Positions 36,401-51,073 of a stretch of 64,000 nt of DNA are shown in pieces (position 1 is the stretch's first letter; the number at the start of each line of letters is the position of its first letter). A program made the translations under genes and the position numbers. Below the pieces are notes generated by a model. It saw nothing but the letters and a program-made list of their open reading frames with translations, was not told the DNA's origin and made no database searches. Source of the stretch: Flavobacterium sp. 5 (GTDB lineage Bacteria; Bacteroidota; Bacteroidia; Flavobacteriales; Flavobacteriaceae); the NCBI RefSeq assembly GCF_002813295.1, contig NZ_PHUE01000001.1, positions 4,092,001-4,156,000 of the forward strand, given 5' to 3'.

Positions 36401-39400
36401 GAAAAAGCAATGAGTTCTGTAGTTGAAAAATTCAATATGGCTTATTCGGATAAAGAGTATCAATATACTTTATACTACTATGATCAGGCTGGTAATCTAA
36501 TTCAAACAGTCGCTCCAGAAGGGGTTAAGCGTTTATCTGCTCCTAATGTTGCTGAAGCTTTAACGCTGAATCAAAATATTAATAATATCCGAAATAATCA
36601 CTCTACTCAAAATGTATCTTTCCTGCCAAAACATACTTTTAAGACAGAATATAAATACAACTCTCTAAATCAGCTTGTGTGGCAGCAAACTCCGGACGGA
36701 GGTATCACTCGATTCGCCTATGACAAATTAGGCCGAATCATTGCATCTCAAAATGCTAACCAAATTAATTCAAATATTGAACCAGGTTTACAGCGTTTTA
36801 GCTTCACTAATTATGATTATTTAGGACGAATTATCGAAGCAGGTGAAATACACGTAACCAATTCTTTGTATACTATTAGCGAAGAAGGAAAATTAATCGT
36901 AGGTGACACTCCAATTGATAAATTTGATGAAAGCTTTGTTAAAACAGAAGTCAGCAAAACTGTTTATACAGAGGATCCTCAGGCAGATAATACAACCAAA
37001 GCTTCTGCCTTATTTACTACCAATGCAACCCAAGGTTTTAATCCTTCGGATACTAACAGAAACCGCGTAACGGGTATTTACTATTATAATACATATATAC
37101 AAACGGCTCCTTTATCATTTGATAATGCTATTTTCTATAATTATGATGTTCACGGAAATGTAAAAGAATTGGTAAGCTATAATACGTATCTAAAAAATCT
37201 TGGGTGTAATTCAGCTATTGTTATTGATGCCGCTTCAGGGCTGACTAATGACTGCGAAGCCCATCTTAAAAGGGTAGTTTACGATTACGATTTGATTAGC
37301 GGAAATGTAAATTCAGTTATTTTCCAACCTCGTAAAGCAGATCAGTTTATTCACAAATACAATTATGATGCTGATAACCGAATTGTAGATGTAAATACCT
37401 CTACAGATGGTGTTATTTGGGAAAAAGATGCTAGCTATCAATATTATCCTCATGGTCCATTGGCAAGAGTGGAGTTAGGAAATAAAAACGTCCAAGGCAT
37501 AGATTATGCCTATACCCTACATGGCTGGTTAAAAGCGGTGAATGGAGAAAATATTGCTGATTCTGCTAATGATTTAGGCCATGACGGAACTGGAACCAAA
37601 ACAAAAGATGCTTTTGGATATTCGTTAAACTATTATGACAAAGATTATAAAGCAATTGTAAATGATGATGAAAGTCAAAGTTTTGGTCCTCTTATGTTTA
37701 GCAGAGATAATGCAATAGCTGGAAATATCAATGATTTGTACAATGGTAACATTAAACAAATGACAACCGCTATTCGCAAAAAAAATGATGAACTTTTACC
37801 TGTTCAGAAAAATAATTATACCTATGATCAGCTGAATCGTATAACAGCAATGAAGTCAAAGTCTATTGTTCCAAATAAAACGGGACATGATGAAGTTAAA
37901 GAAAGCTATGATGCAAGTTATTCATACGATCGTAATGGAAACTTACAAACACTAAAAAGAAGTGCACCAGATGTAAATGGAGTTCCAATTGCTATGGATA
38001 ACCTTACCTATAAATATGCTGATGGCAACAATCGATTAAACAAAGTCTTTGATGCTGCAGACGATATTTTTAATGAAACCGGAAAAGATCTTAAGAAAAA
38101 CATCAAAGAACTTACATCTTACAACAAAAAAAATACAAGTACTCATAATTATATTTATGATTCAATCGGACAGCTTGTACAGGATAAATCCGAAGGATTA
38201 AAAATTTATTGGCGTGTTGATGGCAAAGTCAAAAAGATAATAAAAACAATAGGTAATGTCAATCGAATTATCTCTTTTGAATATGACGGTCTTGGAAATC
38301 GTATCGCTAAAAAAGTTTATGCCGAAACTTCCCCTGAAAATAGCACTACTACCTATTATGCACGTGATGCGCAAGGAAACGAGTTGGCAGTTTATAATCT
38401 TACCGAATCGTCTTCAAACAAAAGTCTAACCATAAAAGAACACCATATTTTTGGGAGCAGCAGACTTGGTTTAGAAGAATCTGATAAGATCGTATACCAA
38501 TCTGGAAGCATCAATACGCAAAAAATAATTCAACCAGCTATTGCAGGTAAATCAACAGCGCAAAATGAACTTGCAGTTACAGAAAAAGTACTCACTGCAC
38601 AAAGTTTTATAACACCGCTAATAACATTATCTCCCGTACCTGTCTATCGCGATTATGCATTAAATTTTAATGCAAATACAATTGCCTCATGGCCTAGTGC
38701 AAGCAGCAGTATTAAAGATAAAAATGCCGAATTTACAAGAATAGTATTAGATACAAAATTCAATATTACAGGTAACACGCCAAATATCAGAAACGGAAAC
38801 TACATCGTTGCCAATTTAGAATACAAAGGTATTGTTGCAATCGGACCTCATAATAGTGTACTTACTAAATCTCCTGCTAACAGTTGTATAACTGTAGAAC
38901 CAATTACTGCGGGAGAAAAAATTTACAATATCACCCGACCTTCTAACTGTAAAAATAGCGAGTTATCATTTGGAGAAGTCCTAAAACAAAATGAAGATGG
39001 ATATGTTGATTATAATATCACCAGAAGAGATGTCAGTTATGATATTAAAGTGGGATTTACGATAAATAATAAATTTTATGGCTTTAATACCCGTTCCGGA
39101 TCAACAGGAAATTGGCTCTTTAGACATGCTACTTTATTTGTTTATAGAGTAGTAAATGGAGCAGAAGCTGAAATTGCAAGATCAACTAATGATAATGCTT
39201 CTTATAACTTAAGACTTCAACGTGAAGGCAGGGTATTAAGATATTATCTTAATAACAATCTCATACATACCATTTCTATTTCAAATTTTCCTGTAATCCT
39301 AACTACACATACAGGAGAAAACAACAAACTTTATCGTTTAAAACTTTATAAAACTAAAACTTCTAATGAAGAGTTAACCACACAGGTTTTAGTCTCTTTG

Positions 39401-41938
39401 CAAAAATCGAACACTGGCTATAAAACAGAAATAAAGGCAGCACAAAGAACAGCTTCAGAAACACTTAGAAAATTTAGTACTACATCTGATAATATAAGTT
39501 TTGAAGAGGCTCAAAAAGAAATTGATTTGAAATTTAATGCCGATTTCAAATCAAAATCAATACTATATGTCGTTAATAATGCTTCCCAAACCCTAAATAA
39601 TACTGACTGGACATTACCTACAAGTTCATCACTTGAGTTAATCCCGATTAATAATAAAAATCAAATAGTAGGAAGTCCCAGATTAGCATTTAATATGTGT
39701 TATTTTAATTATAGCATCAATCCATATACAGGTACTCCTAACTCAAACAATTTTGAATTTGATGATGTAACCAGCATTACAGTTACCAATAATCCAACAA
39801 AATCTAAAACTGGAACCAGTATGACAGTAACTCCTACTATAAAACGAGTACTGGATGGCCCCTGTCTGCTGGATCAGGATAAAGATGGTGTTTTTGACAT
39901 CTATGAGGATGTAGATGGCGACGGAAATTTGGCAAACGATGATACCAATCTTGATCAAATTCCTAATTACAAAGATGCTGATGATGATGGAGATGGTATA
40001 TTAACCAAATACGAAGGTGCAGTAATTAACACTTCAAATAAGGCTCCGTATTATGAAAATAAGAATTCATTAAATAGTGATGGTGATTTGATGCCAAATT
40101 ATTTAGATAAAGATGATGACAACGATGGTGTAGACACTAAATTTGAAGGTGTAAATCCTGATCAAGATGGAAATCCATCAACAGGAAATACACTAGATAC
40201 CGATCGTGATGGAATATTTGATTATCTGGATATTGATGATGATGGTGATGGATTGTATACTATGTATGAGAACCCTAATCCGGATGCAGATGGGAACCCA
40301 AATACGGGCTTAACACTCAATACTGATCATTATACAGGTATAAAAGGAGATATAAAAATAGATAATATTTGGAATTATCTGGATAATGATGATGATGGCG
40401 ATGGTGTTTTAACTCAGTATGAACACGCAGATGATGATGGAAACCATAATCCGTTTACTGGTATTGTACCATTAAACACAAATGGTGTGGCATCAACTAA
40501 TCACCCGAAAATGATTGTAAATAATATCCCCAATTATCTTGATGAAGATGATGACGGAGATGGATACCAAACCTGGGAAGAAGGTGCAAATCCTGACGGA
40601 GATGGAAACCCGGCTACAGGAGCAACTCGTGATACAGATCAAAATGGCATAGTAGATTATCTGGATTATCAAGATAGAATTTATCCCGAGACTGAACAAG
40701 TTCAATTAAATAATTATGTAAATTTGGCTGGAGATAAGCTTTATGAGCTTTCGAATCATTTAGGAAATGTATTAGCAGTAATTTCAGATCGTAAGATCCC
40801 TGAATTGGATGATATGAGTTCTTTGAAGTATTTTAATGCAGATGTAGTTAGTTATTCTGATTATTATCCTTTTGGAATGATTGTACCGAATAGACACGGT
40901 AGCAGTGATAGTTACCGTTACGGGTTTAATGGGAAGGAACTTGACAATGAATTAAAGGGTGAAGGAAATAGCTATAATTTTGGGGCAAGGATGTATGACC
41001 CTAGAGTTGGAAGATGGTTTAGTGCTGATAAAATGAAATCAAGAGCACCTGAATGGTCTCCTTATAGATTTGCTTTTGACAATCCAATGAGGTATAAGGA
41101 TGCCGATGGGAATTGGGAAGAAGATGGTCATTTTTGGACTGTTTATGCAATGGGAATTGCAATGGGCATGAAGCCGTCAAACGCAAGACAACTAGCTGAA
41201 TATGCTGAATATTATGACCATTCAGTACACGGAGATAATTCGATGAGTATTACTCCTCACAAATCTGGACTAAGTTGGGGTAAAGATGGAGGTCTTGGAA
41301 CATGGGCTGACCCAGATTTACAGAAAACATATCATGGACTTACAGGAGGATTACAAAAAGAAGTCTTAAATGACGCAATATCTAATGTTATTACTGGAAC
41401 ACTATGCGATTTACATAAAGTTGGTGATGCTTGGGCTCATAGTTATATTAAGAATGGTAAACGAATAATGTATGGTGCTCATGGTGTAAATGAACCTTGG
41501 TATTCTTCTATAGTAAAATTTACTCTAGGAGATATTACATTTGAACATGCAATGGGAGGTCCTGAACATGGTGAACATGCAGATAATATTGCAGACCGAC
41601 CAGTTGAATATATGAGTTATGTAAAAACTTTAAAAAATCTTTATATCAAAGCTTTTGGAGACGATATAAAAACAAAGAAACCTGATTTAACTATCTTTGC
41701 TTATGTTCAAGAAAATGGTAAAACAAAAGAAAACAATATATTTTTACTTAATTCTTATATTAATATGAGTGGGGGACAGAAAATATTTAGTGGTTTAAGT
41801 CCAAATCAAAATTTATTATTATCAGGCTACTTAGACAGTGTTGGAATTAAATATAATTCAGGAAGCAATCTAACACCAGCAGATAAAAAGCACAAATTGA
41901 GGTCAAGTCCTGAAACATTTACTTTACAAATTAAATAA
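30476..41938 (+). CDS. Giant RHS/YD-repeat protein with calcium-binding repeats and a C-terminal metallo-phospholipase-like toxin domain
   Basis: 3820 residues. A signal peptide (1-29) precedes FnIII-like modules (about 195-280). A thrombospondin type 3-like block (DTDQDGVFDNCDNCPTIYNP) lies near 1570. At least eight YD repeats fall at about 1990-2670 (YYDQAGNLIQT, YDKLGRIIASQN, YDYLGRIIEAG). A second run of DxDGxG-rich calcium loops lies at about 3125-3400. The RHS core (YPFGMIVPNRHG ... DPRVGRWFSAD ... NPMRYKDADGN) ends near 3547. The last 270 residues are the variable toxin: YYDHSVHGDNS, LHKVGDAWAHS (H3647, D3651, H3655) and FEHAMGGPEHGEHADN, a His/Asp pattern like zinc-dependent phospholipase C helices. 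The toxin activity is inferred. Confidence 0.82.
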   Translation: MNTYKKQHIFFILTILFLFFINSTSMFGQKNIYRAPVMTYNSDEIKNATIIKSIVDPEIKIPNQKSIHPKAYIRLKASSDLAPFVHAVTKMVLTIIPILPDGKMDDIANQYDTTLEVEYNPMGNSSNFIDLSSHELTNRYGVKVIVKSYETNGNSNILNDNISLELGFESERYYLVTEQLADVKTTILNDLTNGTQAALNFNWTPLTGALEYELEWTWVDNYSPNNADIMLKEENIPFSSRDFELNNTRIRTQNPSYEIPLIYSKGYIIYRVRAVGRFLDDTNKVYYGPWSSGIANKNTVADWIKSYKLLNFEHESLKNWQFQASYAEQGKKKEVVSYFDGSLRNRQTVTKINTDEKAIVGELLYDAQGRPAIEILPVPLNQKYIRYFKDLNQNTKNQLFTHLDFDWESSDSTCNPSLSGMINTSGSSKYYSGKNDIDSPFKNYIPSASDYPFSQTEYTPDNTGRISRKGGVGPEHQLGKGHEMQYIYSVPNQEELNRLFGYEVGYAAHYKKNIVIDPNGQSSVSYLDPQGRTIATALAGGANGLKLDALYDTNDENLHKTIKVDLLNKINPEDADTNLDNNELASSSDLSAQKDMLIVSKQLGVASNKTEHHFDYITTFKETSFQPEKCTDKYGFVYDLNISLKDKCATELFIPNITNSRIGDYYINSASATINSDIKILPDTLSLDAGSYSLLKELKVNKDILNKYADNYIAQLTDPTKACYIAPDIFKNNNSINISCTTTCESCTTTLGTQKDYVLQQLKGIYNIPENDNTTLTLSTVNQNLVATINPNIPILVNMGQGIEQGEVANFISSLKEEWEKLSQVCASLCGPTFASSCAINEKSLLADVSPYGQYGLQPDDLMNPNSIWDTLSVFNSSNKIIYNGETDANNWEHPFIPYKNIDGSDALIEVTKDEDGYSPTVKTGTIIQKDDRYFVLPENLASVNDFLDNWSPSWAQSLLQYHPEYEYLKYTKEVCTLTTGDTPNNNLKNLTTDDYDGFLNTLDTYDKAITAGYFDSNNTVTFNKIFSSDPYFSSALGSDFETAAIYNLRRDIMIDALEKHYENFTIDGTKNGNPAKMLQVALQMIKCNSIQACNVSSISYSNLTLSEKTLLWNTYKSLYISLKGNIKQVFMNLYTANKGKSNSCIGKEGASDFTNLLKNYPDRVTTIKTNINTPATTFCSNAAIADYKNKEKRFISTDFAYDSDSDATDAQNQLVVQANYQSYVQTGNCPALTDLSIFLGRLFNDINIANSSISAWHTIGQGLSPKLFADFTGETLPLSLSSSPAMNIQAGASELSFTFSPTLLSGTALKLKLPSGSNLSWNNYSATGWHIIGFTNFYYDAASSSLSLQTPVFGYKVVARIQVGNDASTQREVVLSGTTFAKIGECQIGGAPGIGEVLIADDSDCTKKEQFAQNLNILLQHIQASGNLSNSGYNITSDTAFYSSNNSFLKLYFGLTDSDVVLWKNNAGIAVITVNDIKRVTIDLQGFDTSLGAISNVSIGALKAKNEANVLKITYKNNLGKQITRLATIASGKAKKPLYFACCASCGEWDYNGDGSGDKCDTIDPCGITDTDQDGVFDNCDNCPTIYNPKQEPCNSICSVPNNEEIMFENRLKDLINNFIEGNYGIVGKKGLVSQDIFMKNFVIDCNIVNHFQAFRNRFATNYFEPVVLTSYKINQNNKQVNIFFSYNPTIGLDSENDISLRIDIENAKHINNIDINGNNITINLTDKQNNIVTRTDTGLFFSGAGTSVYTLYCPFMTEVYPPKKITNTAKPSLVAKSSLFASTESTCSGPCIPQTVSPISCDDKYTVYVNFLSNASTKIEGISVENITSQEGKNDFCQGKLQYLVEDYINYITTFNIKSTKNPNYISLIAFGDTQLNYGYKNMSAAIANYNSYNTANLNNDDRLYWQDYINTIYVKGITECLPAPMPFYSIDVPAPEHTPCEELVANVSAAYQTDAYNKYMASLRQEFIDQYTEKAMSSVVEKFNMAYSDKEYQYTLYYYDQAGNLIQTVAPEGVKRLSAPNVAEALTLNQNINNIRNNHSTQNVSFLPKHTFKTEYKYNSLNQLVWQQTPDGGITRFAYDKLGRIIASQNANQINSNIEPGLQRFSFTNYDYLGRIIEAGEIHVTNSLYTISEEGKLIVGDTPIDKFDESFVKTEVSKTVYTEDPQADNTTKASALFTTNATQGFNPSDTNRNRVTGIYYYNTYIQTAPLSFDNAIFYNYDVHGNVKELVSYNTYLKNLGCNSAIVIDAASGLTNDCEAHLKRVVYDYDLISGNVNSVIFQPRKADQFIHKYNYDADNRIVDVNTSTDGVIWEKDASYQYYPHGPLARVELGNKNVQGIDYAYTLHGWLKAVNGENIADSANDLGHDGTGTKTKDAFGYSLNYYDKDYKAIVNDDESQSFGPLMFSRDNAIAGNINDLYNGNIKQMTTAIRKKNDELLPVQKNNYTYDQLNRITAMKSKSIVPNKTGHDEVKESYDASYSYDRNGNLQTLKRSAPDVNGVPIAMDNLTYKYADGNNRLNKVFDAADDIFNETGKDLKKNIKELTSYNKKNTSTHNYIYDSIGQLVQDKSEGLKIYWRVDGKVKKIIKTIGNVNRIISFEYDGLGNRIAKKVYAETSPENSTTTYYARDAQGNELAVYNLTESSSNKSLTIKEHHIFGSSRLGLEESDKIVYQSGSINTQKIIQPAIAGKSTAQNELAVTEKVLTAQSFITPLITLSPVPVYRDYALNFNANTIASWPSASSSIKDKNAEFTRIVLDTKFNITGNTPNIRNGNYIVANLEYKGIVAIGPHNSVLTKSPANSCITVEPITAGEKIYNITRPSNCKNSELSFGEVLKQNEDGYVDYNITRRDVSYDIKVGFTINNKFYGFNTRSGSTGNWLFRHATLFVYRVVNGAEAEIARSTNDNASYNLRLQREGRVLRYYLNNNLIHTISISNFPVILTTHTGENNKLYRLKLYKTKTSNEELTTQVLVSLQKSNTGYKTEIKAAQRTASETLRKFSTTSDNISFEEAQKEIDLKFNADFKSKSILYVVNNASQTLNNTDWTLPTSSSLELIPINNKNQIVGSPRLAFNMCYFNYSINPYTGTPNSNNFEFDDVTSITVTNNPTKSKTGTSMTVTPTIKRVLDGPCLLDQDKDGVFDIYEDVDGDGNLANDDTNLDQIPNYKDADDDGDGILTKYEGAVINTSNKAPYYENKNSLNSDGDLMPNYLDKDDDNDGVDTKFEGVNPDQDGNPSTGNTLDTDRDGIFDYLDIDDDGDGLYTMYENPNPDADGNPNTGLTLNTDHYTGIKGDIKIDNIWNYLDNDDDGDGVLTQYEHADDDGNHNPFTGIVPLNTNGVASTNHPKMIVNNIPNYLDEDDDGDGYQTWEEGANPDGDGNPATGATRDTDQNGIVDYLDYQDRIYPETEQVQLNNYVNLAGDKLYELSNHLGNVLAVISDRKIPELDDMSSLKYFNADVVSYSDYYPFGMIVPNRHGSSDSYRYGFNGKELDNELKGEGNSYNFGARMYDPRVGRWFSADKMKSRAPEWSPYRFAFDNPMRYKDADGNWEEDGHFWTVYAMGIAMGMKPSNARQLAEYAEYYDHSVHGDNSMSITPHKSGLSWGKDGGLGTWADPDLQKTYHGLTGGLQKEVLNDAISNVITGTLCDLHKVGDAWAHSYIKNGKRIMYGAHGVNEPWYSSIVKFTLGDITFEHAMGGPEHGEHADNIADRPVEYMSYVKTLKNLYIKAFGDDIKTKKPDLTIFAYVQENGKTKENNIFLLNSYINMSGGQKIFSGLSPNQNLLLSGYLDSVGIKYNSGSNLTPADKKHKLRSSPETFTLQIK

Positions 41939-41941
41939 CAT

Positions 41942-42172
41942 ATGATATTTTTAGACATTAATAGCTCTTCATTTTTGGTAGTGTTTTTTTTATTCTTTTT
42001 GTTTGTTTTGTTTATTTTTTTTATTTTTTTAGAGGCTTTAAAAAAAACAAGATTCTCAAATATAAAAAATGTTGTGCTTAAAAAGATTATTGTTTTTTTA
42101 GTGTCCATTTTAATTATTTATATTATTTTATATATAATGTATGAGATTAGAGGAAAAGGTTTTTTAGAATAG
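41942..42172 (+). CDS. Two-TM small protein, candidate immunity protein
   Basis: 76 residues starting 3 bases after the RHS stop. Two hydrophobic segments (about 11-31, FLVVFFLFFLFVLFIFFIFL, and 48-67, IIVFLVSILIIYIILYIMYE) are separated by a short basic loop (KKTRFSNIKNVVLKK). Genes directly behind RHS toxin tips normally encode the cognate immunity protein. A membrane protein would suit a toxin that attacks phospholipid or acts in the periplasm. It is followed by a terminator. No family is recognised. Confidence 0.62.
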   Translation: MIFLDINSSSFLVVFFLFFLFVLFIFFIFLEALKKTRFSNIKNVVLKKIIVFLVSILIIYIILYIMYEIRGKGFLE

Positions 42173-42242: not shown

Positions 42243-42278
42243 AAAAAGCCATTCCATCAACGGAGTGGCTTTTGGTTT
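42243..42278. terminator. Bidirectional intrinsic terminator
   Basis: AAAAGCCATTCC (42243-42254) pairs with GGAGTGGCTTTT (42261-42272) with one mismatch, flanked by A-rich and T-rich sequence. It separates the rhs operon (plus) from the convergent polymerase-like gene (minus). Confidence 0.7.
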
Positions 42279-42299
42279 TTATTGCTCATATTACTAAGT

Positions 42300-43898
42300 T
42301 CAAGCACTCTTTATAAAGCTTTCAGACACATAGCATGCTTCTGGATTATGCTCATCGTATATTTTCAATACGCTATCTAACATCGTATCACCTATATCAA
42401 ATTGAACTACAACATCAATAAAGTCCAATAGTTCACCATTCTCTATCTTCTGTAATATCTCATTTTTAACTCTTAAACTATGATTGAACATAGAAGAATC
42501 AACAACGATTTTTTGCTCATTAATATCAATATTTGGCTTTAAGCCCATGTGTGCGTTTTTAGTGCCACTTAGCTTGGTCGTTGTTTTGACACCATGTTCT
42601 AAGATTATCCTATTCATGGTTTCTGCTACCAAATCACTATCGCTTTCTTCACATAAAAGTGCATCATACACGTACAGAACATGAATACCTTTAGCATTCA
42701 GATACGTAATAATATCGCTCATGACAGCTACTTCAACGCTAAACATCTTTTGAGAAGTAATCTTGTGACCATGTTCTTTTTTATCATGATAGATTCTTGC
42801 TAACATGTCGGATTCATTTTTAGAATAATAGTCAAAGAGCGGTGAATTTCTCATTTGATTCCAGTTCATGTTGAAAAAGCTTAAGTGAAGTATTTTTACT
42901 TCCTTAATGTCAATACCAGCTGATTCGGCTACGCTCTCATGTGTAAGATAACTTGCTTTACCATCATACAAACTGATAGCAATATTTGGATGTAATGCGC
43001 TATAATCGCACTCAATCAGCTTCTTACCATCGATTGTAATTTGTTCTCTTATCCATGACGGCATGAGCGTGAAACTATCCACCACACGACCACCGCTTGA
43101 CATATCACCAGCACTAGGAATCATAAACCCACGACCAGTCAAGAACTCAAAGAGCTTGATATTATCCTCAACAAAGCTTCTGTTATCTGCATCAATCCAG
43201 TAATCATTTATGTGTTTGTTACGCATGGTCAGTATCTTGCCCTTTTTGGTAGTAAGACCCTTTTTAACCAATTTCTTACCGATAACTAGTAATTCTGTGC
43301 TAGTAGGTAAATCAATCTTTGGATACATCGCAATGAGATTGGAACAGATTGGATTTGTCATAGCTTTATGTAGTTGCTGATAGTACAGCTTGTTTCTATT
43401 GCGTATTATACCAGTATCTTTTATGATATATTCCACAAGCCCCGCTTTTAGATAAGTATCAGTTAATCGGAATCTTTTTGAGTGTATGCCAGCTTGATAA
43501 CTATCATCAACCTCGATAAATGCACCCGTGCTAGTTCCCGCTTTAAGAACATCGATTATTTTAGTGTATATATAGGTATTGTCTGCATTTTTGGTTTGCT
43601 CATGCAGTAGCTCAGCGTTCAGGCACTTCCATTTATCATCAGTGTAATACGTACTTGCAAGGTTGTATAGGAATACTAAGCATTTTTCAACCGCTATGCT
43701 AACATCAGTGTCAATTGCTTTGAGCATCGACTTTGGAACGTATTTGCTTAGGTTGTACTGCGCTTTCTTTGGAATTAGGATTGAGTTTACGTTCGGGAAA
43801 CGTAGTGCTGATTGAGACAGCTTATAATCGTTTTGGAGTAGGTCTATGTCTCCAGTATCGCCAGTGAAGGCAATGTAATCTTCATTTTTTGAGTTCAT
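42300..43898 (-). CDS. Polymerase-like protein with family A palm motifs, copy 1
   Basis: 532 residues. The N-terminal half (about 40-200) looks like winged-helix DNA-binding sequence (KCLNAELLHEQTKNADNTYI). The C-terminal half carries RVVDSFTLMPSWIREQIT, then motif A-like LIECDYSALHPNIAISLY, a helix like the family A O-helix region (KMFSVEVAVMSDIITYLNAK), and motif C-like VLYVYDALLCEE. Both presumed metal-binding Asp residues are present. No exonuclease domain, and no reverse-transcriptase YxDD motif. Related proteins occur on phages and plasmids, where a replication role is presumed. A second copy lies at 51873-53211. Confidence 0.6.
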   Translation of the reverse strand: MNSKNEDYIAFTGDTGDIDLLQNDYKLSQSALRFPNVNSILIPKKAQYNLSKYVPKSMLKAIDTDVSIAVEKCLVFLYNLASTYYTDDKWKCLNAELLHEQTKNADNTYIYTKIIDVLKAGTSTGAFIEVDDSYQAGIHSKRFRLTDTYLKAGLVEYIIKDTGIIRNRNKLYYQQLHKAMTNPICSNLIAMYPKIDLPTSTELLVIGKKLVKKGLTTKKGKILTMRNKHINDYWIDADNRSFVEDNIKLFEFLTGRGFMIPSAGDMSSGGRVVDSFTLMPSWIREQITIDGKKLIECDYSALHPNIAISLYDGKASYLTHESVAESAGIDIKEVKILHLSFFNMNWNQMRNSPLFDYYSKNESDMLARIYHDKKEHGHKITSQKMFSVEVAVMSDIITYLNAKGIHVLYVYDALLCEESDSDLVAETMNRIILEHGVKTTTKLSGTKNAHMGLKPNIDINEQKIVVDSSMFNHSLRVKNEILQKIENGELLDFIDVVVQFDIGDTMLDSVLKIYDEHNPEACYVSESFIKSA

Positions 43899-43918
43899 TG
43901 TGATATTCTCTTATTCTC

Positions 43919-43993
43919 GTTCCGTCACTTAGGACGGATTATTGTCTCTTAGATTTTACTTGGTAAGAGAAGCTGGGGCATGACTCCCAGCAA
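43919..43993 (-). promoter_or_regulatory. Three tandem hairpins in the leader of the polymerase-like gene
   Basis: Three perfect stems follow one another: TCCGTC/GACGGA (43921-43938), TCTCTTA/TAAGAGA (43945-43970) and GCTGGG/CCCAGC (43972-43991). They lie 23-95 bases upstream of the ATG and would form a compact structured 5' leader or separate small RNA. The second polymerase copy lost this part to an IS. Confidence 0.45.
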
Positions 43994-44517
43994 CCAAGGT
44001 TTTTATGAGTTATTCTCTCAGTTTATTGCTTTTATCAATTATACTTCTAAATGATAAAATAGTCAATAGTCTTTGAAAACTATTTTTGAAAATATTTTAA
44101 TTATTCTTCAAGCTCCATTAAAGTAATAGCGCAAATTGAGCATAAACTTATAAATGAAGTATTCATCTATTCCTTTATACAAGTAGTGTTACAACCCATT
44201 TATTCTATTATATATAAAGTAACATATATGATGGAAAGAGAATAGAAGAAGAATGGAAATAATTCTTTAAACAACTAATTATTAAAAAAATCTTATCAAA
44301 TCATTGATGTACCATAACACTCCCTTTACGTTCCTATAGAACTGTGTATTCGCACGTAAGAGCTGTGTGAGCCTAAAAATGGAACTGCCAGCTCATGTCC
44401 TCCCTCTCCTACCTCCCTGCATAGTATAAATCACTGATTTACAGCACTAAGTTACCGCCTTTCACGATTCCCAAAACGTACACATTCATACTGATAGCGT
44501 TGGATATGTCCGTTTAC
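43994..44517. other. Non-coding block between the polymerase-like gene and the recombinase element
   Basis: No ORF with coding character is visible. The part at 44310-44520 is clearly richer in G and C than the surroundings, with a polypyrimidine tract (GTCCTCCCTCTCCTACC, about 44397) and short hairpins such as GTTC-ctata-GAAC (44331-44343). It may be the outer end or attachment region of the recombinase element. Confidence 0.4.
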
Positions 44518-44564
44518 TGCGCTAAAAATTTTGGACAAAAAATTTTGGAACAACTTTTAGCGCA
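44518..44564. repeat. Perfect 10-base inverted repeat enclosing direct repeats
   Basis: TGCGCTAAAA (44518-44527) and TTTTAGCGCA (44555-44564) are perfect complements. Between them AATTTTGGA occurs twice, separated by CAAAA. The arrangement of outer inverted and inner direct repeats is like a tyrosine recombinase crossover site or an operator, and it lies 22 bases before the small ORF that opens the recombinase block. Confidence 0.5.
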
Positions 44565-44585
44565 TATTTATAGTATAAAGAGATT

Positions 44586-44732
44586 ATGAGAATACTAATA
44601 CGATTATCCCAATGGCAACAAGTTCTACAATCAGAACCGCTAAAGCTACCTATCCATTTTAAAAGAATAGATTTCACCGATAAAGAATATAAATTGTTTC
44701 AAAAATTATTGCAATCCAAAGAACGAGGCTAA
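44586..44732 (+). CDS. Small protein (48 residues) of unknown function
   Basis: ATG at 44586 to TAA at 44732: MRILIRLSQWQQVLQSEPLK, then IHFKRIDFTDKEYKLFQKLLQ. It is basic with aromatic residues, and no family is recognised. An intrinsic terminator overlaps its stop, which argues for a real short transcript. Its place right after an inverted-repeat site and before the recombinases suggests an excisionase-like or regulatory role, but this is only positional. Confidence 0.4.
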   Translation: MRILIRLSQWQQVLQSEPLKLPIHFKRIDFTDKEYKLFQKLLQSKERG

Positions 44733-44747
44733 GACCTCGTTTTTTTG
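44721..44747 (+). terminator. Intrinsic terminator
   Basis: AACGAGG (44722-44728) pairs perfectly with CCTCGTT (44735-44741) around a 6-base loop, followed by six T. It ends the transcript of the 48-residue ORF. Confidence 0.75.
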
Positions 44748-44957
44748 TTGGTCTACATTTCAAAAAAGCTGTGAGCCCAGGAAATCCAGGATTTTTCTTG
44801 TTTAATCCAAAATAGACCTGGACATTTGTTTCACTTTTGATAAGAAGTGAAAGTGACAGCGTAAACCCAGTAAAATAGGGTGTTCGCAGAGGTTAGTAAA
44901 ATGGCCACATTCAGATACATATATTAAGGAATAAAAGTGAAACTAAATTAGAAGATT

Positions 44958-45533
44958 ATGGCATTAAAAGGACAAAAAACAACGAGTGATTTTTTAGAGT
45001 GGAATAAGATGCAAACTATCGTTTTGAAGTTGGAGCGAGATAATGACCTAAAATTTGCGCTACTTATTGCAACAGGTTCTTATATTGGACTAAGAATTTC
45101 TGACCTACTTCAACTAAGATGGAATCAAGTTTTACATGAAGAGTTGTTCACCATCACCGAAAAGAAAACTAAAAAGATTCGTAAAGTGACCATTAACCCA
45201 GAGCTTCAAATTATACTTAAAAGATTGTTTATCCAATTGGAAGCCAAAGAAACGGACTTAATGTTTGTGAACCGTTTTGGAGAGAAACCGTTTAGCATCC
45301 AGTACGTGAATAGCAAACTTAAAGATATTTTTACCAAATACAGCGTCAGAGGTCAGTATTCGAGCCACTTCATGAGAAAAACACTAGGTCGTAGAGTGTG
45401 GGAGGTCAACAAGTACTCTGACCAAGCTTTATTGTTATTGTCTCAATTGTTCAATCATACAAGTGTGTCCACCACCAAAATCTACCTAGGGATTAGAGAA
45501 CAGGAAATCAGTAACTTATATCTTAGCGTATAA
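44958..45533 (+). CDS. Tyrosine recombinase, catalytic domain only
   Basis: 191 residues with no core-binding domain. Catalytic residues are visible: R46 in GLRISDLLQL, H137 and R140 in SSHFMRKTLG, H167 in LFNHTSVSTT, and Y176 in KIYLGI. The enzyme would cut and rejoin DNA through a 3'-phosphotyrosine. At 191 residues it is much shorter than XerD (about 300). It is followed by a degenerate relative (45629-46357), and the pairing recurs at 48146-49943. Confidence 0.85.
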   Translation: MALKGQKTTSDFLEWNKMQTIVLKLERDNDLKFALLIATGSYIGLRISDLLQLRWNQVLHEELFTITEKKTKKIRKVTINPELQIILKRLFIQLEAKETDLMFVNRFGEKPFSIQYVNSKLKDIFTKYSVRGQYSSHFMRKTLGRRVWEVNKYSDQALLLLSQLFNHTSVSTTKIYLGIREQEISNLYLSV

Positions 45534-45572
45534 TTAATTTGTTGTATTTGCGTAAATAAAATGAAAATAAGA

Positions 45573-45602
45573 TTGTTTATTCAAATAAAAATGTTACATT
45601 TG
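45573..45602 (+). promoter_or_regulatory. Bacteroidetes promoter TTG-N19-TACATTTG
   Basis: TTG at 45573-45575 and TACATTTG at 45595-45602 are separated by 19 bases, a full match to the TTG/TAnnTTTG consensus. The start site would be about 45608, some 20 bases before the ATG at 45629. It gives the downstream part of the element its own transcription. Confidence 0.72.
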
Positions 45603-45628
45603 CATAACAAAAATGAAATAACAACAAC

Positions 45629-46357
45629 ATGGAAGAAAATCTAAAACATTGGAGCAGTCAAACGATAGTCTTATTAGGAATGTGGTTATGGGATAAAGGC
45701 GAATACGGTCACGCCTTGTTGTGTATGCACGCCCCACAATGGGGACTAAAGATAGGAACTTTACTAAGTGTCACATGGGATGATGTAATGCACTATGATG
45801 ATAATCATCCAAAACATGATTTAGTTATTTCTGATAAAGAAACTCCTATTCGGTCAATTAATCACTCCATCCAAGAATCGATAGAAATAGCTTATGCCAA
45901 ACTTCCTATTGTGAACATTGAAGATACTCTTTATATGAATTATAAAACGGGTAAACCTTTGACTTCATCGACTTTAAATAGGGAATTGAAGCGTTTTGGA
46001 GAAGACTTTTTAGCTGAACTAAAAGAAAAGACTGGATTCGATTTACAGTTAAAAACCTTAAAAACAAATTCCTTTGAAATCGCTTGGGCTTTGGATATGG
46101 CTAAAAAATACCACTACAAAAAGCAGGTCTTCGTATCACTTTCGAGTTTCATGGGACATAGAACGGTTAAAGACACCATCAAGTTACTAGAGATTGAGCC
46201 TGACGATAAAATTGAATTTGATTTTGACAATATAAAATCGATTCATAATATGATGGATGCGGGAATTTTTAACGATAAAGATGCCTTGAGCAAGTTTATT
46301 TATCAAGATATAATTTTTGCGGGTGAAGAATTGATTCCCGTCCTGCTTAAGAACTAA
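45629..46357 (+). CDS. Degenerate tyrosine-recombinase-like protein lacking catalytic residues
   Basis: 242 residues with the recombinase fold pattern, but key positions are changed. The box I Arg is Lys41 (WGLKIGTLLSVTW). The HxxR box reads LKTNSFEIAW. The end reads SFMGHRTVKDTIKLLEI, keeping GH but with no nucleophilic Tyr. An acidic C-terminal extension (DDKIEFDFDN...) of about 50 residues follows. It probably binds DNA or its active partner without cutting. It has its own promoter and lies 95 bases downstream of the active gene. Confidence 0.7.
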   Translation: MEENLKHWSSQTIVLLGMWLWDKGEYGHALLCMHAPQWGLKIGTLLSVTWDDVMHYDDNHPKHDLVISDKETPIRSINHSIQESIEIAYAKLPIVNIEDTLYMNYKTGKPLTSSTLNRELKRFGEDFLAELKEKTGFDLQLKTLKTNSFEIAWALDMAKKYHYKKQVFVSLSSFMGHRTVKDTIKLLEIEPDDKIEFDFDNIKSIHNMMDAGIFNDKDALSKFIYQDIIFAGEELIPVLLKN

Positions 46358-46438
46358 ACAAACCTCTTTTTATTGAATTATCTCTTCGGTGCAAGACCCG
46401 AACAGGGATTCTTACCTCTAATTTTAACCTTGCATCAG

Positions 46439-48064
46439 ATGAAAAACAACATGCAAGAACAAGAACCACAGAGTTTTATGAGAATTGATTTCGACCCAAA
46501 AACAGCAGTTCAACTCGAAGACCCCTTACTTAATGGCTACGGACTGGATTTGACCAATACTGATTTTATAAAGTACCAAAACGGCAATCTGGAAGCGGAG
46601 GTAATTGGAGGTATTTCAACGCTAAATCTAACAAGGTTTCAAGTAACACTAAAGATTTCTCGAAGACCACAGATGAGCGCACAAGATGTGTACCGCAATA
46701 CAGTCGATTTGTATAATGAGAATAATATTCAAAATTTTATTAGACAGACCAGCATCAAATTAAAAATTGATTCTACCATCATAGCTGATTTCATTTTTGA
46801 CCTTACCGAACGCTTAGAATCGTATCGTAAGAACAAGCTAACCTATAAAGAAGAAAACATCTTAGTTCCTGCCAGTAGCACCAAAGACCAAAAGAAGCTT
46901 AAAGAATTATTGAATAGTGATACGCTTTTGGAGGATTTGCAAGAGCTTCTGGTTCAAGCGGGTGTTCAATGTGGTAAAATAGGATTGCAATTGTTTTTAA
47001 TAGCTCTCAGTAGTAAACTCCCTAGTGTGATGCATGGCATTTTACAAGGCAGTACTGAGATTTCCAGTGAATTAATCAAAACCTTTTCCAATGTGTTGCC
47101 TGCTGAGATAAACCGATTTAAGACCTCAATTTCAGATAGTGTATTGTATTATGCTCCAAATGAAAACTATTGGAAAAACAAAGTATTGCTCTTGCCAAGC
47201 ATCGATACATTAGGAAAAAAGAACACGGCTATAACAGAACTAATTCTACAAGGTGAGGTCAATCGATTGGTTACGGAAAACACCGAGCAAGGCACTTACC
47301 GAGCCAGTAGCAAAATGGTAAAAGGAAATCTCAGTTTTATTAGTTCTACCGCTAGAGGCTACCATGAACTCATGAACACCGATACAGTGATGGCAATACC
47401 AATCTCTAATCTCAATGCAATAAAAGAAGCCATAACCACAGCAGAAATAAAGCGATTTGCAGGGCTATTAGATGAAAATGAACTACTAACCGCTCAAGCC
47501 AAAATACAAGGCTTATTTCGAGAATTAAAAGCTATTAAGGTGGTCAATCCTTATCTTGAGCAATTGAATGTCAGTGCGTTTTTTGATAACGATGGAAGAC
47601 TCATAACCCAATTTTTAAGAATCACGACCCTCATCGCTCTACTACATCAAAAACAACTAGTTATGACACAAACAAAAGGTGTTTACCAAATTGAGGTGCA
47701 AGCTAAGCACATGGAACAGGCATTGGAACTCTTTAAAGAAATTTGGTTCAAACAAGAAAAAGAACTCCATTTCAAAGTAGCAAGTACACTAGTCAGAATC
47801 AAGAACACTCTTATCAAAGAATCACCCGAAAGTTATAAAGAATCGGAATTCTTTGTCAAAGACATGCGAGCCAAACTAAAAGCCGTTCCCTCAAGTTTTG
47901 CAAGACATATCAATACGCTTTATGATTACGGCAAGTTGGAGCGCACTGATGGAAACAGAAAGGACGGATATACTTACACCGTTGCCAATTGGAATGATAC
48001 CAACAGCACCGCAAAGCAGTACGAAGACTTCAAAAAAGAGATAATCTCATTGCAATCTCAGTAG
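46439..48064 (+). CDS. Primase/ATPase-like protein with a degenerate P-loop
   Basis: About 541 residues from the ATG at 46439 (an upstream TTG at 46373 is open but less likely). The layout resembles the C-terminal helicase part of mobile-element primases: LPSVMHGILQGSTEISSELIK stands where GxxGxGKS should be, followed by VLPAEINRFKTSISDSVLYY, KNKVLLLPSID at the Walker B place, TELILQGEVNRLVT, and a C-terminal winged-helix-like part (MRAKLKAVPSSFARHINTL). The Gly-Lys-Ser of Walker A is missing, so ATP hydrolysis is unlikely. It sits between two recombinase pairs. Confidence 0.5.
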   Translation: MKNNMQEQEPQSFMRIDFDPKTAVQLEDPLLNGYGLDLTNTDFIKYQNGNLEAEVIGGISTLNLTRFQVTLKISRRPQMSAQDVYRNTVDLYNENNIQNFIRQTSIKLKIDSTIIADFIFDLTERLESYRKNKLTYKEENILVPASSTKDQKKLKELLNSDTLLEDLQELLVQAGVQCGKIGLQLFLIALSSKLPSVMHGILQGSTEISSELIKTFSNVLPAEINRFKTSISDSVLYYAPNENYWKNKVLLLPSIDTLGKKNTAITELILQGEVNRLVTENTEQGTYRASSKMVKGNLSFISSTARGYHELMNTDTVMAIPISNLNAIKEAITTAEIKRFAGLLDENELLTAQAKIQGLFRELKAIKVVNPYLEQLNVSAFFDNDGRLITQFLRITTLIALLHQKQLVMTQTKGVYQIEVQAKHMEQALELFKEIWFKQEKELHFKVASTLVRIKNTLIKESPESYKESEFFVKDMRAKLKAVPSSFARHINTLYDYGKLERTDGNRKDGYTYTVANWNDTNSTAKQYEDFKKEIISLQSQ

Positions 48065-48145
48065 TTTCTCATGGCTCAATGGCTTGTGAATACTGGACTA
48101 AGCTCAATAAATGAGAAACTTAATGATACTATATAAAAAAGAAAT

Positions 48146-49057
48146 ATGAAAAAATTAGAAATACATATCCTTCCATTTATTGAAGCCTTAGAACGCTTTG
48201 CTATTCGATTAGAGACTCAAGGAGCTTCACAGAGTCAAGTATATATCAAAGCCAACAGTGTTAAAGAATTTTTGCATTACCTAGAGCAAAAAGGTATCAC
48301 CAAGCTCAGCCAAATCAATCAAAAACGAGTCGATGAGTATTTTGAATATTTAAAGAATAGACCCCTAGAGACCAAAAACGGAACAATGTCACCAGCCTAT
48401 CTACTCAAGCATCGGGAATGTGTTTTAAGATTCATTGAATTTGTATTGAGCCAGCAACAGGAAATCGGTCACGGTCAAAGTGGTATTCAAATCAGGATTG
48501 ATAAAAGCGAGACAGCCCCCAAGGAGATTTTACTAGAGAATGAGGTAGAGTTATTATTTGATGCTTGTGGTGACAATCTGTTAGGAATACGAGATAAAGC
48601 CATTCTTAGCCTCCTATACGGCTGTGGTCTAAGAAGGAAAGAAGCTTTGCAATTGGACATAAGCGAAATAGATTTGAACAAAGGTCGAGTTCATATTGAC
48701 AAGTCTAAAACCAAGCATGCTAGAGACGTTCCCATGTCAACCAAAGTTCAGCAGAATATCGAAGAGTATTTGTTTAATGTTAGGAATTTAATGCTAGACA
48801 GCAACAGTGACCTTACTAGCTTTCTAATAACCGAGCGAGGAACTCAGATGAATGACGGGACACTCGGCAAAGTAATAGAACGGTTATCTAAAAAAATAAA
48901 TATTGGCAAGGTGGTTACTTGTCATTTATTGAGACACTCCATTGCGACCCATCTACACCGATACATGATAATTGAAGATGTAGCAAAGTTCTTAGGACAT
49001 CAAAGCCTTGATTCAACTATGATTTATACTCACTTAAAAAACGAATACTATGGATAA
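48146..49057 (+). CDS. Tyrosine recombinase (XerD-like), active
   Basis: 303 residues with an N-terminal core-binding domain (about 8-105) and catalytic domain (about 125-300). Active-site residues R163 (GCGLRRKEAL), K190 region, H260 and R263 (TCHLLRHSIATHL), H285 (FLGHQSLDST) and Y294 (IYTHL) are all present. The gene overlaps the next one by 8 bases (ATGGATAA), so the two products are made together. It is likely the main integrase of the element. Confidence 0.92.
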   Translation: MKKLEIHILPFIEALERFAIRLETQGASQSQVYIKANSVKEFLHYLEQKGITKLSQINQKRVDEYFEYLKNRPLETKNGTMSPAYLLKHRECVLRFIEFVLSQQQEIGHGQSGIQIRIDKSETAPKEILLENEVELLFDACGDNLLGIRDKAILSLLYGCGLRRKEALQLDISEIDLNKGRVHIDKSKTKHARDVPMSTKVQQNIEEYLFNVRNLMLDSNSDLTSFLITERGTQMNDGTLGKVIERLSKKINIGKVVTCHLLRHSIATHLHRYMIIEDVAKFLGHQSLDSTMIYTHLKNEYYG

Positions 49058-49943
49058 AGATAAAATGATTGATAGATTTAGAAACTATTTAGTGGATGAA
49101 TTGAGCTATACTCTGACAACTTACAAAGGCTATAAGACCTGCGTTAGTAGTTATTTGGATTGGCTCATGGCAAATAACATCGAACCCAAAATGATGACCC
49201 TAAACCTTACTTATGACTTCCTATCGTACCGAAAATCAAAAGGAGATACCAATCAAAACATAAGTATTTACAAAACGGCTATAACCCATTTCAACCAAGC
49301 TATAGCCATGAAATCAAATCCCGCCTTACTGGTTCATTTGGCTAAGAACGAACGTAAGACCCCAACTAAGCTACTCGATGAAGAGTTCTTGAGTGCAATC
49401 TATCGAGACACCTCAGCCAATACTCTTGTTCAGAAGCGAGATAGATGTATTATCGGCATGATGGTCTTTTTAGGATTACAACGCTCAGAAATTGGCTTAT
49501 TACAGTTGGAGGATTTGCAATTAGAACAGGCACGCATTTACGTTAATGGAAACCTAAACACTAACGAGAGATATATTGATTTAAACCCTAAACAGATGCT
49601 ACATTTATCCCAATATCTGTATGAAATTAGAACACCGTTATTAAAGGAATATCGATTGACAACCAATAGCTTATTTTTTAGCTGTGGTGGTGCAACTGCT
49701 TTAGATGGAGCATTGTCAAGACTAAGCAAACGAATCAAAAGAGAATTCCATTATGTGAAAGATTTTAAACAGCTCAAACAATCCCGAATAAGTATTTGGG
49801 TCAAGGAATTAGGACTACGCCAAGCTCAATATTTAGGTGGCTATCGCTATGTAACCAGTGTTCAACGATATGATTTTAAAAGCATCGATGATTTGAAATT
49901 GAAGTTGGAATGTAATCATCCCATGGAACGATTTAATCATTAA
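49050..49943 (+). CDS. Partner tyrosine-recombinase-like protein with altered active site
   Basis: 297 residues with a recombinase core-binding domain and catalytic-fold domain. Box I reads FLGLQRSEIGLL with Gln144 in place of Arg. The HxxRH box reads KQSRIS (K243, R246). The GH motif is LGGYRYVTS, yet Tyr274 (VQRYDF) remains. Loss of the first Arg and both His should abolish or sharply reduce cleavage. Translation is coupled to the active XerD-like gene, suggesting a heteromeric complex. A terminator follows. Confidence 0.78.
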   Translation: MDKDKMIDRFRNYLVDELSYTLTTYKGYKTCVSSYLDWLMANNIEPKMMTLNLTYDFLSYRKSKGDTNQNISIYKTAITHFNQAIAMKSNPALLVHLAKNERKTPTKLLDEEFLSAIYRDTSANTLVQKRDRCIIGMMVFLGLQRSEIGLLQLEDLQLEQARIYVNGNLNTNERYIDLNPKQMLHLSQYLYEIRTPLLKEYRLTTNSLFFSCGGATALDGALSRLSKRIKREFHYVKDFKQLKQSRISIWVKELGLRQAQYLGGYRYVTSVQRYDFKSIDDLKLKLECNHPMERFNH

Positions 49944-49972
49944 ATAAAATATTCATTTATAATAATTCAGTG

Positions 49973-50003
49973 AACCACTTAGCAATCTAAGTGGTTTTTT
50001 TGT
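49973..50003 (+). terminator. Intrinsic terminator after the recombinase genes
   Basis: AACCACTTAG (49973-49982) pairs perfectly with CTAAGTGGTT (49987-49996) around a 4-base loop, followed by a run of T. It marks the right end of the recombinase transcript. Confidence 0.85.
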
Positions 50004-50050
50004 ATATATTCGTGCCACGTTCTTAAAATTAAAACCTGACTCAAAAAAAG

Positions 50051-51073
50051 CGTATAAAGGGTTATCCTTTTGGAATGCAAGTCCCAACAAGACATGGGCA
50101 AAGCGACAATTACAGATATGGGTTTCAGGGACAGGAAAAAGATGATGAGATAAAAGGCGAAGGGAACAGCTTAAACTACACCTTTAGGATGCACGACCCT
50201 AGAGTTGGAAGGTTCTTTGCTATTGACCCTTTAGCACCAAAATATCCATTTTATTCTCCGTATTCATTTAGTGGAAATAGAGTTATTGACTCTGGAGAAT
50301 TAGAGGGCTTAGAGCCAACAACAAAAGGTAAGAGTGAAGGTGAGAAGCAAACCGCACAATATACTCCGCCGAAAGATGCCTTTTTTCAAGATGAAAAATA
50401 TCAACCAACTTTAGATTGGTTCTGGCACATGGGGTCTGATAATGCAAAATCAGGTTGGTATTCTAAAGGGAATTATGCATATACCCAATTAGATACTAAG
50501 AACGGGCAAGTTATGCCTCCAATGTCAAATTGGGAAAAATTTCCAATGTACACTGAAGGTGCACGAGATTGGCACGGAAATGGTGTTGATTCAAATGGAT
50601 ACTTAACAGGTAGAGAGCCCTATCCTGATTTAACAATTATGTTAGGCGGTTTAGGTGGTGGAAAAAGTAAAATGGCAGGAGAAGCTATTGCATTAATGGG
50701 AGGTGCAAAAAAGGCTGGAGCACTTTGGACAATTTACCAAGGATTTAAATTAGAGGAAAAAAGTGGTGAATTTCTTTTATATATTGGTAAAGCCAAAAAT
50801 GGTATTGCAAATAGATATTCAATAGGTAAAATAAATGATTACGCAATAAAAGCATTTAAACAATTAGAAATGATACCTGATAACGGTACTGCTCTTGGTG
50901 TGGAACAATTGATAATGGAGCTAAACGGATGGAAAGGAAAAGCTTCAAATACTGTTAAGCCAGTTCTATCGAATGTTAATAATGCAACAATTAAAGAAAT
51001 TTATACAACACAGGGTAAAGCTTGGTTGGATACAAACGTAGAGGGTTGGGAAAAATTATTTAAAGTTAATTAG
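50051..51073 (+). CDS. Orphan RHS tip with GIY-YIG-like nuclease toxin domain
   Basis: The open frame holds a piece of RHS core from YPFGMQVPTRHG (50060 on) through DPRVGRFFAIDPLAP and YSFSGNRVIDSGE, without signal peptide or YD repeats, then a variable tip. Using the ATG at 50075 (332 residues), the tip has IY at 220-221, LYIGKA with YIG at 236-238, R247 (IANRYS) and E277 (GVEQLIMELNG), the pattern of GIY-YIG nucleases. This is a typical displaced rhs tip cassette that can replace the tip of the main rhs gene by recombination. It may be silent as it stands. Confidence 0.72.
   Translation, partial: RIKGYPFGMQVPTRHGQSDNYRYGFQGQEKDDEIKGEGNSLNYTFRMHDPRVGRFFAIDPLAPKYPFYSPYSFSGNRVIDSGELEGLEPTTKGKSEGEKQTAQYTPPKDAFFQDEKYQPTLDWFWHMGSDNAKSGWYSKGNYAYTQLDTKNGQVMPPMSNWEKFPMYTEGARDWHGNGVDSNGYLTGREPYPDLTIMLGGLGGGKSKMAGEAIALMGGAKKAGALWTIYQGFKLEEKSGEFLLYIGKAKNGIANRYSIGKINDYAIKAFKQLEMIPDNGTALGVEQLIMELNGWKGKASNTVKPVLSNVNNATIKEIYTTQGKAWLDTNVEGWEKLFKVN

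What the first reader, a model, noticed from the sequence alone, without database searches (positions are those of the whole stretch)
44586..49943. Mobile element built from two active/degenerate tyrosine recombinase pairs plus a primase-like protein without a P-loop
Seen: the gene at 44958 has R46/H137/R140/H167/Y176, while the next one (45629) has Lys for Arg and no Tyr. The gene at 48146 has all catalytic residues, while its coupled partner at 49050 has Gln for the first Arg and lacks both His. Between them a primase/ATPase-like protein has QGSTEISSEL where GxGKS is expected. Known: heteromeric tyrosine recombinases and recombinase trios exist. Inference: repeated pairing of a cutter with a non-cutting paralogue, plus a non-hydrolysing ATPase relative, points to a directed or regulated recombination machine that I cannot match to a described element class.
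Basis: partly seen in the sequence, partly recalled or inferred. Interest (0 to 1): 0.72.

Follow-up and report, generated by a model that had tools for sequence, protein, structure and literature searches.

The report
Toxin-tip-swapping mobile element in Flavobacterium
A small mobile DNA element appears to carry its own recombinase and insert itself inside a large bacterial weapon gene, replacing the weapon's toxic tip with the one it carries and parking the old tip downstream.

Summary
The element is larger than described, about 9.2 kb (window ~40,865-50,073): it starts inside the 3,820-codon rhs gene and ends just before an orphan Rhs tip. The core module is C (MCM-type AAA+), D (recombinase, catalytic residues in 38 of 38 distinct sequences) and E (partner, first Arg lost in 37 of 37). 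Of 45 D-E pairs, 42 have C and 38 have an Rhs tip nearby. Tandem arrays, and one element 99.95% identical in two rhs genes of a genome, put the crossover in one motif, TTTGG in the codons of Rhs YYPFG. A right-end motif marks 30 of 43 orphan junctions, against ~1 expected. Where seen, the insertion leaves rhs open with a new tip. The window's displaced tip stands fused to an rhs core in another genome. Rhs tip displacement is known but was credited to homologous recombination. A/B is an optional accessory; E is under purifying selection; the lost P-loop is confined to the window's clade. No circle or reaction was observed.

The parts
30476..41938 (+). rhs gene, 3820 aa, open reading frame running across attL; N-terminal part is the host core, from about 40865 on it is the element's own tip
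   Evidence: ORF; TIGR03696 Rhs_assc_core; att position
40865..40875 (+). attL core TATCCTTTTGG (codons of YYPFG); the 16-mer TTATCCTTTTGGAATG occurs twice in the window, here and at attR
   Evidence: crossover TTTGG inferred from relatives
40876..41938 (+). element-borne Rhs tip (variable C-terminal domain; no Pfam match)
41942..42172 (+). 76-aa hydrophobic ORF 3 nt after rhs: candidate immunity gene (inference from position)
42300..43898 (-). F, 532-aa cargo protein of unknown function (phrog_4756, unknown); second, 89% DNA-identical partial copy at 51934-53211
44826..44957 (+). partly conserved ~130-bp region upstream of A with TTTCACTTTT / AAGTGAAA / AAAAGTGAAAC repeats: candidate recombination site for A/B
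   Evidence: 6 loci, mean column identity 66%; function inferred
44958..45533 (+). A, 191-aa tyrosine recombinase without N-terminal domain, catalytic residues present
45629..46357 (+). B, tyrosine-recombinase fold without catalytic residues; K41, K145, H177 invariant in 46 aligned family members
46373..48064 (+). C, MCM-type AAA+ domain plus winged helix, P-loop and Walker B lost in this clade (listed TTG start; likely internal ATG)
48146..49057 (+). D, XerC/D-like tyrosine recombinase, full catalytic set
49050..49943 (+). E, recombinase paralogue, Arg I lost, Tyr kept; overlaps D by 8 nt
49973..49996 (+). hairpin followed by T run after E: terminator-like
50017..50024 (+). ACGTTCTT right-end motif
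50063..50073 (+). attR core TATCCTTTTGG; distance attL to attR 9198 bp
50075..51073 (+). displaced (orphan) Rhs tip, 332 aa
51080..51712 (+). putative immunity gene of the displaced tip; homologue follows the homologous tip in L060
51934..53211 (+). remnant of a second related element (89% identical to element interior 42583-43860)

Best explanation
This is an integrative element specialised on polymorphic toxin genes. Its circular form would read [3' part of rhs from YYPFG on: new tip - immunity - cargo - (A,B) - C - D - E - right end]. Recombinase D, with its paralogue E as a non-cutting partner and C as an accessory DNA-remodelling or loading factor, recombines the element's att site with the TATCCnTTTGG sequence in an rhs core. 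Integration fuses the rhs core in frame to the incoming tip and leaves the old tip with its immunity gene as an orphan downstream, next to the element's right end. Repeats of the event build arrays of orphan tips, some without recombinase genes. Shown by sequence: boundaries, crossover motif, in-frame fusion, displacement, recent movement of one element, tip turnover. Inferred: the circle, D as the catalyst at this site, E and C as partners in the reaction, A/B as a resolvase-like accessory acting at the region upstream of A, and adaptive toxin switching.
For: (1) Association: 45 adjacent D-E pairs in 36 loci, 42 with C; Rhs tip on the same strand <5 kb downstream in 31, <9 kb upstream in 29, either in 38. 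The window's 82-aa tip start has only 2 matches in its 4.97-Mb genome. An E-profile search of 395 phylum genomes gave 11 loci not read before; 9 have a tip. (2) Crossover: in tandem arrays att1/att2 agree only to the right and att2/att3 only to the left of TTTGG (L038, L039), an 18-bp stretch containing it (L040), a 35-bp stretch starting TATCCTTTTGG (L041), TGAATTGG (L042, another target gene). (3) Genome G389 carries the same element, 4 mismatches in 7,843 bp, in two rhs genes whose cores differ (74-85% in pieces); identity begins 23 nt before the core and ends just after TTTTGGACTT at the right end, where 13 more bases of the second copy are held. (4) A[CT]GTTC[TA] within 140 nt upstream of 31 of 44 orphan junctions (one was entered twice: 30 of 43), expectation 1.06, maximum 5 in 500 resamplings, and of 2 of 19 fused rhs cores. 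The motif was chosen after looking at some of these junctions. (5) Turnover: 61 tips fall into 53 families; in L091 two elements are 99.3% identical over 6.1 kb but carry unrelated tips. (6) The window's orphan tip (66% over 334 aa) and its neighbour gene (67.5%) occur in L060 with the tip fused to over 100 codons of rhs core, up to the contig start. (7) The frame is open across attL in the window (3820 aa) and e.g. L038, L041, L047, L043 (1426, 1540, 1571, 1694 aa). (8) D keeps all residues in 38 of 38, E loses Arg I in 37 of 37, with E under purifying selection.
Against: No circular form, excision or reaction was observed, and G000 has one copy. 7 of 45 pairs have no recognised Rhs tip in range (L005 first copy, L042 x2, L053, L057, L096, L101; L053, L057 and L101 end at contig or locus ends). 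13 orphan junctions lack the right-end motif, among them all those of L044, L092, L093, L095 and L097, so it is not universal; for 16 of the 44 no core was recognised and the position was estimated. Tandem and same-array copies are not independent. The E profile was built from sequences found through C. Toxin function is weakly supported: Pfam recognised 1 of 10 tips (CdiA_C) and, of 10 genes just downstream of tips, 1 as a named immunity family (Imm26); the window's own tips match nothing. That D/E rather than A act on the att site rests on D/E being present where A is absent. Tandem arrays could also have arisen by RecA after one insertion.
Confidence: 0.85

Rival explanations
1. Tips are moved by RecA-dependent homologous recombination with circular intermediates, as proposed by Jackson et al. 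2009; C-D-E are passengers that happen to sit in rhs loci.
For: Tip arrays exist without recombinases (L060), and Rhs core sequence is repeated at each tip. Jackson et al. proposed this for enterobacteria (passages read).
Against: The conserved block continues well past YYPFG (e.g. ~280 bp at 69% between L038 att1 and att3), yet the junctions are confined to 5-18 bp in four of five arrays and to 35 bp in the fifth. In the 15 orphan tips with an in-frame YYPFG-type motif the nearest stop is 3-27 codons upstream, exactly 6 in 9 of them. The right-end motif is not Rhs coding sequence at orphan junctions and also marks the recombinase-free array L060.
Confidence: 0.08
2. An ordinary integrative element whose attB happens to be rhs; the tip it carries only restores the gene end, as many integrases do for tRNA or icd genes (recalled), and swapping toxins is incidental.
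For: The anatomy (att in the 3' part of a gene, gene end restored) matches that known habit of integrative elements (recalled).
Against: The restored end is not the same end: 61 tips form 53 families, and near-identical elements carry unrelated tips. Recombinase-free cassettes have the same right-end motif. This rival differs from the best explanation mainly in emphasis.
Confidence: 0.1
3. One reading: a directed recombination machine of two active/degenerate pairs whose five-gene order is the functional unit, unrelated to toxins.
For: Both pairs are real and their degenerate members conserved.
Against: A was found in 6 of the loci mapped and is replaced by a serine resolvase in L004 and L048; the element extends into rhs.
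Confidence: 0.03

Closest known systems
Rhs C-terminal displacement (Jackson et al. 2009, PMC2935791; passages read)
   Same: New tips displace old ones into downstream arrays of orphan tips; circular intermediates postulated
   Different: [quoted passage not shown] here a recombinase module is linked, with fixed crossover and right-end motif
Integrase-like genes near Rhs loci in Snodgrassella and Gilliamella (Steele et al. 2017, PMC5727410; passages read; author name recalled)
   Same: Integrase-like genes near Rhs genes, suggested to help capture
   Different: Authors left the role open; no sites or element ends in the passages read; relation to D/E not testable here
rAID orphan-immunity arrays of Bacteroidales (PMC12247911; passages read)
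   Same: Tyrosine recombinase linked to an array of interbacterial-conflict genes with shared intergenic motifs
   Different: rAID is described as immunity genes; here toxin tips are fused in frame to a weapon gene and the module has D, E and C
Integrons (recalled)
   Same: Integrase plus array of cassettes; recombinase-free cassettes in L060
   Different: Two-protein recombinase plus AAA+; cassette site is a coding sequence; no consistent attC-like fold
R64 shufflon Rci (recalled)
   Same: Tyrosine recombinase exchanges the C-terminal end of a surface protein
   Different: Shufflon inverts resident segments; here elements insert, bringing new ends
XerC/XerD
   Same: E is closest in sequence to Xer-type recombinases; two-protein pair
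   Different: In XerCD both can cut (recalled); E lacks Arg I in 37 of 37
MCM-type AAA+ helicases and primase-MCM fusions
   Different: Window clade lacks primase domains, P-loop and Walker B
MrpR/YopR, recombinase-fold repressors (repressor role partly recalled)
   Different: No evidence that B is a repressor

Membership tests
Rhs tip-displacement locus | Full-length rhs followed by orphan tips that share the core end but have different C-termini | tested here: met
   Window 30476-41938 and 50075-51073; 61 tips in 53 families
Rhs tip-displacement locus | Junctions scattered through the shared core, core fragments of varying length (Jackson model of homologous recombination) | tested here: not met
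   Junctions confined to YYPFG codons in three Rhs arrays and the two G389 copies, to 35 bp starting there in L041, to TGAATTGG in L042; this does not exclude homologous recombination elsewhere
Site-specific integrative element (tyrosine integrase) | Integrase gene inside the element | tested here: met
   D, 38 of 38 distinct with R-H-R-H-H-Y
Site-specific integrative element (tyrosine integrase) | Short identical core at both ends, same site in independent insertions | tested here: met
Site-specific integrative element (tyrosine integrase) | Excised circle and recombination activity | not testable with these tools
   needs reads or bench work; the middle junction of tandem arrays is what a circle junction would look like
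Integron | Integrase that recombines folded single-stranded attC sites (recalled) | tested here: inconclusive
   Right ends: z -1.85/-2.31 (window, due to a terminator-like hairpin), 0.30/-0.02 (L038), -3.06/-2.96 (L042)
Recombinase in trio / Tn554-type element | Several catalytically competent recombinases in one operon (recalled) | tested here: not met
   E and B lack catalytic residues; A was found in 6 of the mapped loci
Conjugative/mobilizable element | Relaxase gene in the element | tested here: inconclusive
   Pfam scan of nine window proteins (A-H and the second F copy) found none; not every ORF of every relative was scanned
Active P-loop ATPase (C) | Walker A and B | tested here: not met
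   Lost in window, L002, L003, L004 first module, L007; Walker A intact in the other 28 C copies aligned's loci (tandem duplicates included; L091-L097 not aligned)

The most novel reading that the evidence does not exclude
A toxin-tip capture system that works like an integron for weapons: a recombinase that can cut only half of the synapse (D active, E permanently inactive) makes one strand exchange, and the Holliday junction is resolved by replication, for which the MCM-type/primase protein C was recruited. It acts in trans on recombinase-free tip-immunity cassettes carrying the ACGTTCTT right end (as in L060), so that a cell draws new warheads for any rhs core with TATCCnTTTGG.
Probability: 0.3. 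Interest if true: 0.92.

Novelty: new variant of a known kind. Interest (0 to 1): 0.8.

Why it matters
How Rhs toxins change their tips has been open since displacement was described in 2009, when an integrase was said not to be known with Rhs. Here is a concrete enzyme set, a crossover site placed to a few bases and an element end, found in several families of one phylum, so the question becomes directly testable with reporter substrates. It also gives a natural case of a recurrent active/inactive recombinase pair, and of an MCM-type ATPase that has lost its ATP-binding motif in one clade while staying conserved.

Tried and rejected
Viral and phage origin: no relative of C in viral contigs or phages; in plasmids 5 distant hits, 4 of them annotated toprim or CHC2. 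attC-like folding of the right end: not consistent. Pseudogene reading of E and C: not supported by dN/dS (E 3 pairs 0.048-0.148; C 28 pairs, median 0.115, the 6 printed ones all P-loop carriers; one P-loop-less C pair, L003/L004, 0.112, a second one saturated). For B no DNA pair was measured; only invariant columns support it. That resolvase carriers lack tandem arrays seemed so by eye but is too weak and not claimed. Defence-system reading: no PADLOC match for six proteins. F stayed unidentified. The fold searches for C and B say which folds match; folds not listed are not excluded. The profile searches of solved structures with C and B alignments gave nothing. In one search two columns of E were shifted; one search replaces them. 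One search's automatic intervals failed for L038 (indel), L091, L093 and L094; L038 was read from the alignment and none is claimed for the other three. In one search the L060 pattern found nothing because it was wrongly written; one search replaces it. Rows dropped: L054_13804 from the D counts and L042_14025 (a D copy) from the E counts, 13 of 76 tip hits (too close to a locus end, or identical upstream sequence).

Papers: 10 searches covering Rhs/polymorphic toxin with recombinase, integrase, site-specific recombination, attachment site, displacement, cassette, rAID and GMT islands. No description of such an element was seen in the listings. Subscription journals are mostly not held, so this is not proof of absence. 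Passages only were read of PMC12247911, PMC13183296, PMC5727410, PMC2935791.
Full report
The five ORFs are present and the residue claims are right, with one addition: E keeps the Tyr. C lacks both Walker motifs that its relatives have. The genome is one 4.97-Mb contig. Its genus is Flavobacterium by inference: same-genus genome G723 has a contig of 5,427,275 bases, the length listed for a Flavobacterium flavigenum protein. Bacteroidota as the phylum follows from that.

What recurs. Homologues of C: 91 proteins among the 7,998 candidates scored, 77 of them close (bits 341 or more); the other 14 carry PF27228, 11 of them with primase-type domains (two of these 14 show CHC2 and Toprim as well). 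Homologues of B: 115. Of 397 family genomes, 27 (own included) have a C relative at E 0.001, a few of them weak. With an E profile, 14 of 395 phylum genomes, in six families, score 150 bits or more, against at most 118 for the next hits, which I take for chromosomal Xer genes. Gene maps of the window and 26 loci and 11 more show the unit C-D-E on one strand: 45 adjacent D-E pairs in 36 loci, 42 with C within 2 kb. A and B are present in W, L002 and L050, A alone in L003, L006 and L007; L004 and L048 have a serine resolvase upstream of C.

The Rhs link. In 38 of 45 pairs an Rhs tip lies on the same strand within 5 kb downstream or 9 kb upstream. The tip genes start with the end of the Rhs core and then diverge. 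The 61 tips with at least 80 residues beyond the core (L060 not included) fall into 53 families. The window's tip start has 2 matches in the whole genome, one on each side of the module.

Element ends. Self-comparison shows tandem copies with periods 7417 (L038), 7706 (L039), 7170 (L040), 6749 (L041) and 8534 bp (L042). Aligning the three junctions of each array (L040's printout was cut, its interval is) gives the picture expected of site-specific integration: left and middle junction agree to the right, middle and right junction agree to the left, and the switch falls in TTTGG (L038, L039), in an 18-bp stretch containing it (L040), or in 35 bp starting with TATCCTTTTGG (L041). In L042, a relative with a full primase-type C and a target gene not recognised as Rhs, it is TGAATTGG. 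Independently, genome G389 carries one element in two rhs genes: 4 mismatches in 7,843 bp, left limit 23 nt before the core, right limit just after TTTTGGACTT, rhs cores upstream alike only in pieces (74-85%). In the window the same core TATCCTTTTGG occurs exactly twice, 9198 bp apart.

Right end. Sequence upstream of orphan tips has a stop a few codons before YYPFG: 3-27 codons in the 15 with an in-frame motif, exactly 6 in 9 of them. A[CT]GTTC[TA] is found within 140 nt in 31 of 44 orphan junctions (30 of 43 after one double entry is removed; 23 of 29 loci); 500 first-order resamplings gave a mean of 1.06 and a maximum of 5; fused rhs cores have it in 2 of 19. The pattern was written down after seeing some of these junctions, so the expectation is flattering, and lineages such as L044, L092, L093, L095 and L097 lack it. 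L060 has six orphan tips in a row with no recombinase gene recognised between them; three are followed by an ORF of at least 120 aa that I take for an immunity gene, and all six junctions match the motif.

Displacement and turnover. The window's orphan tip and its downstream neighbour have homologues in L060 (66% over 334 aa; 67.5%), where the tip is fused to over 100 codons of rhs core up to the contig start. That search found the tip in 2 of 397 genomes, the own one included. In L091 two neighbouring elements are 99.3% identical over 6.1 kb while their tips are unrelated. Downstream of the window's orphan tip lies a piece 89% identical to the element interior, so an older element was probably there before.

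Mechanism, step by step. Shown by sequence: where the element ends, that rhs stays in frame, that tips are replaced and stored. Inferred: excision as a circle; D as the cutter; E as the partner that holds one half-site without cutting; C as a loader or remodeller, with ATP use probably lost in this clade; A (with B) as an accessory like the resolvases of other transposons, perhaps acting on the partly conserved region upstream of A. The retained Tyr of E is unexplained.

Comparison. C-terminal displacement of Rhs is known (PMC2935791, passages read); [quoted passage not shown] A study of bee gut bacteria (PMC5727410, passages read) saw integrase-like genes near Rhs and left the role open. Ten searches showed no element of this description in their listings. 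I file it as a new variant of a known kind: a site-specific integrative element whose att site is in a toxin gene and whose cargo is the replacement toxin tip.

Weak points. No activity data; toxin and immunity roles rest mainly on position (Pfam matches for 1 of 10 tips and a named immunity family for 1 of 10 candidates); 7 of 45 pairs lack a recognised tip; counts include related copies.

Noticed in passing
L042:1119-1904, 9794-10438, 18332-19138: In this relative the element's right end encodes a signal-peptide-like start that fuses in frame to the tip following it.
   Followed up: partly
L060:2178-11972: Six recombinase-free orphan Rhs tips in a row, three with a following immunity-like ORF, each with the right-end motif: possible non-autonomous cassettes.
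   Followed up: partly
window 42300-43898 and 51934-53211: F, a 532-aa minus-strand protein of unknown function with a DYSALHPN stretch (polymerase-like only from memory); two matches in the genome.
   Followed up: partly
window 44826-44957: Partly conserved region with TTTCACTTTT/AAGTGAAA repeats upstream of A in six loci, perhaps a resolution site.
   Followed up: partly
L003:7629-8591, L007:7698-8591: C-5 cytosine DNA methylase on the minus strand just upstream of A.
   Followed up: no
L095, L097, L099, L042 junction regions: CAATTGAA palindrome within T/A runs; L095 and L097 have no ACGTTC match in the 140 nt scanned, L099 has both, L042 was not in that scan.
   Followed up: no
window 53200-54600: Fragments that look like transposase genes (by eye) where the older element remnant stops.
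   Followed up: no
L060 and L091 fused rhs cores: ACGTTCTT also occurs 26 nt before the core inside the coding sequence, so attB itself may carry the motif.
   Followed up: no
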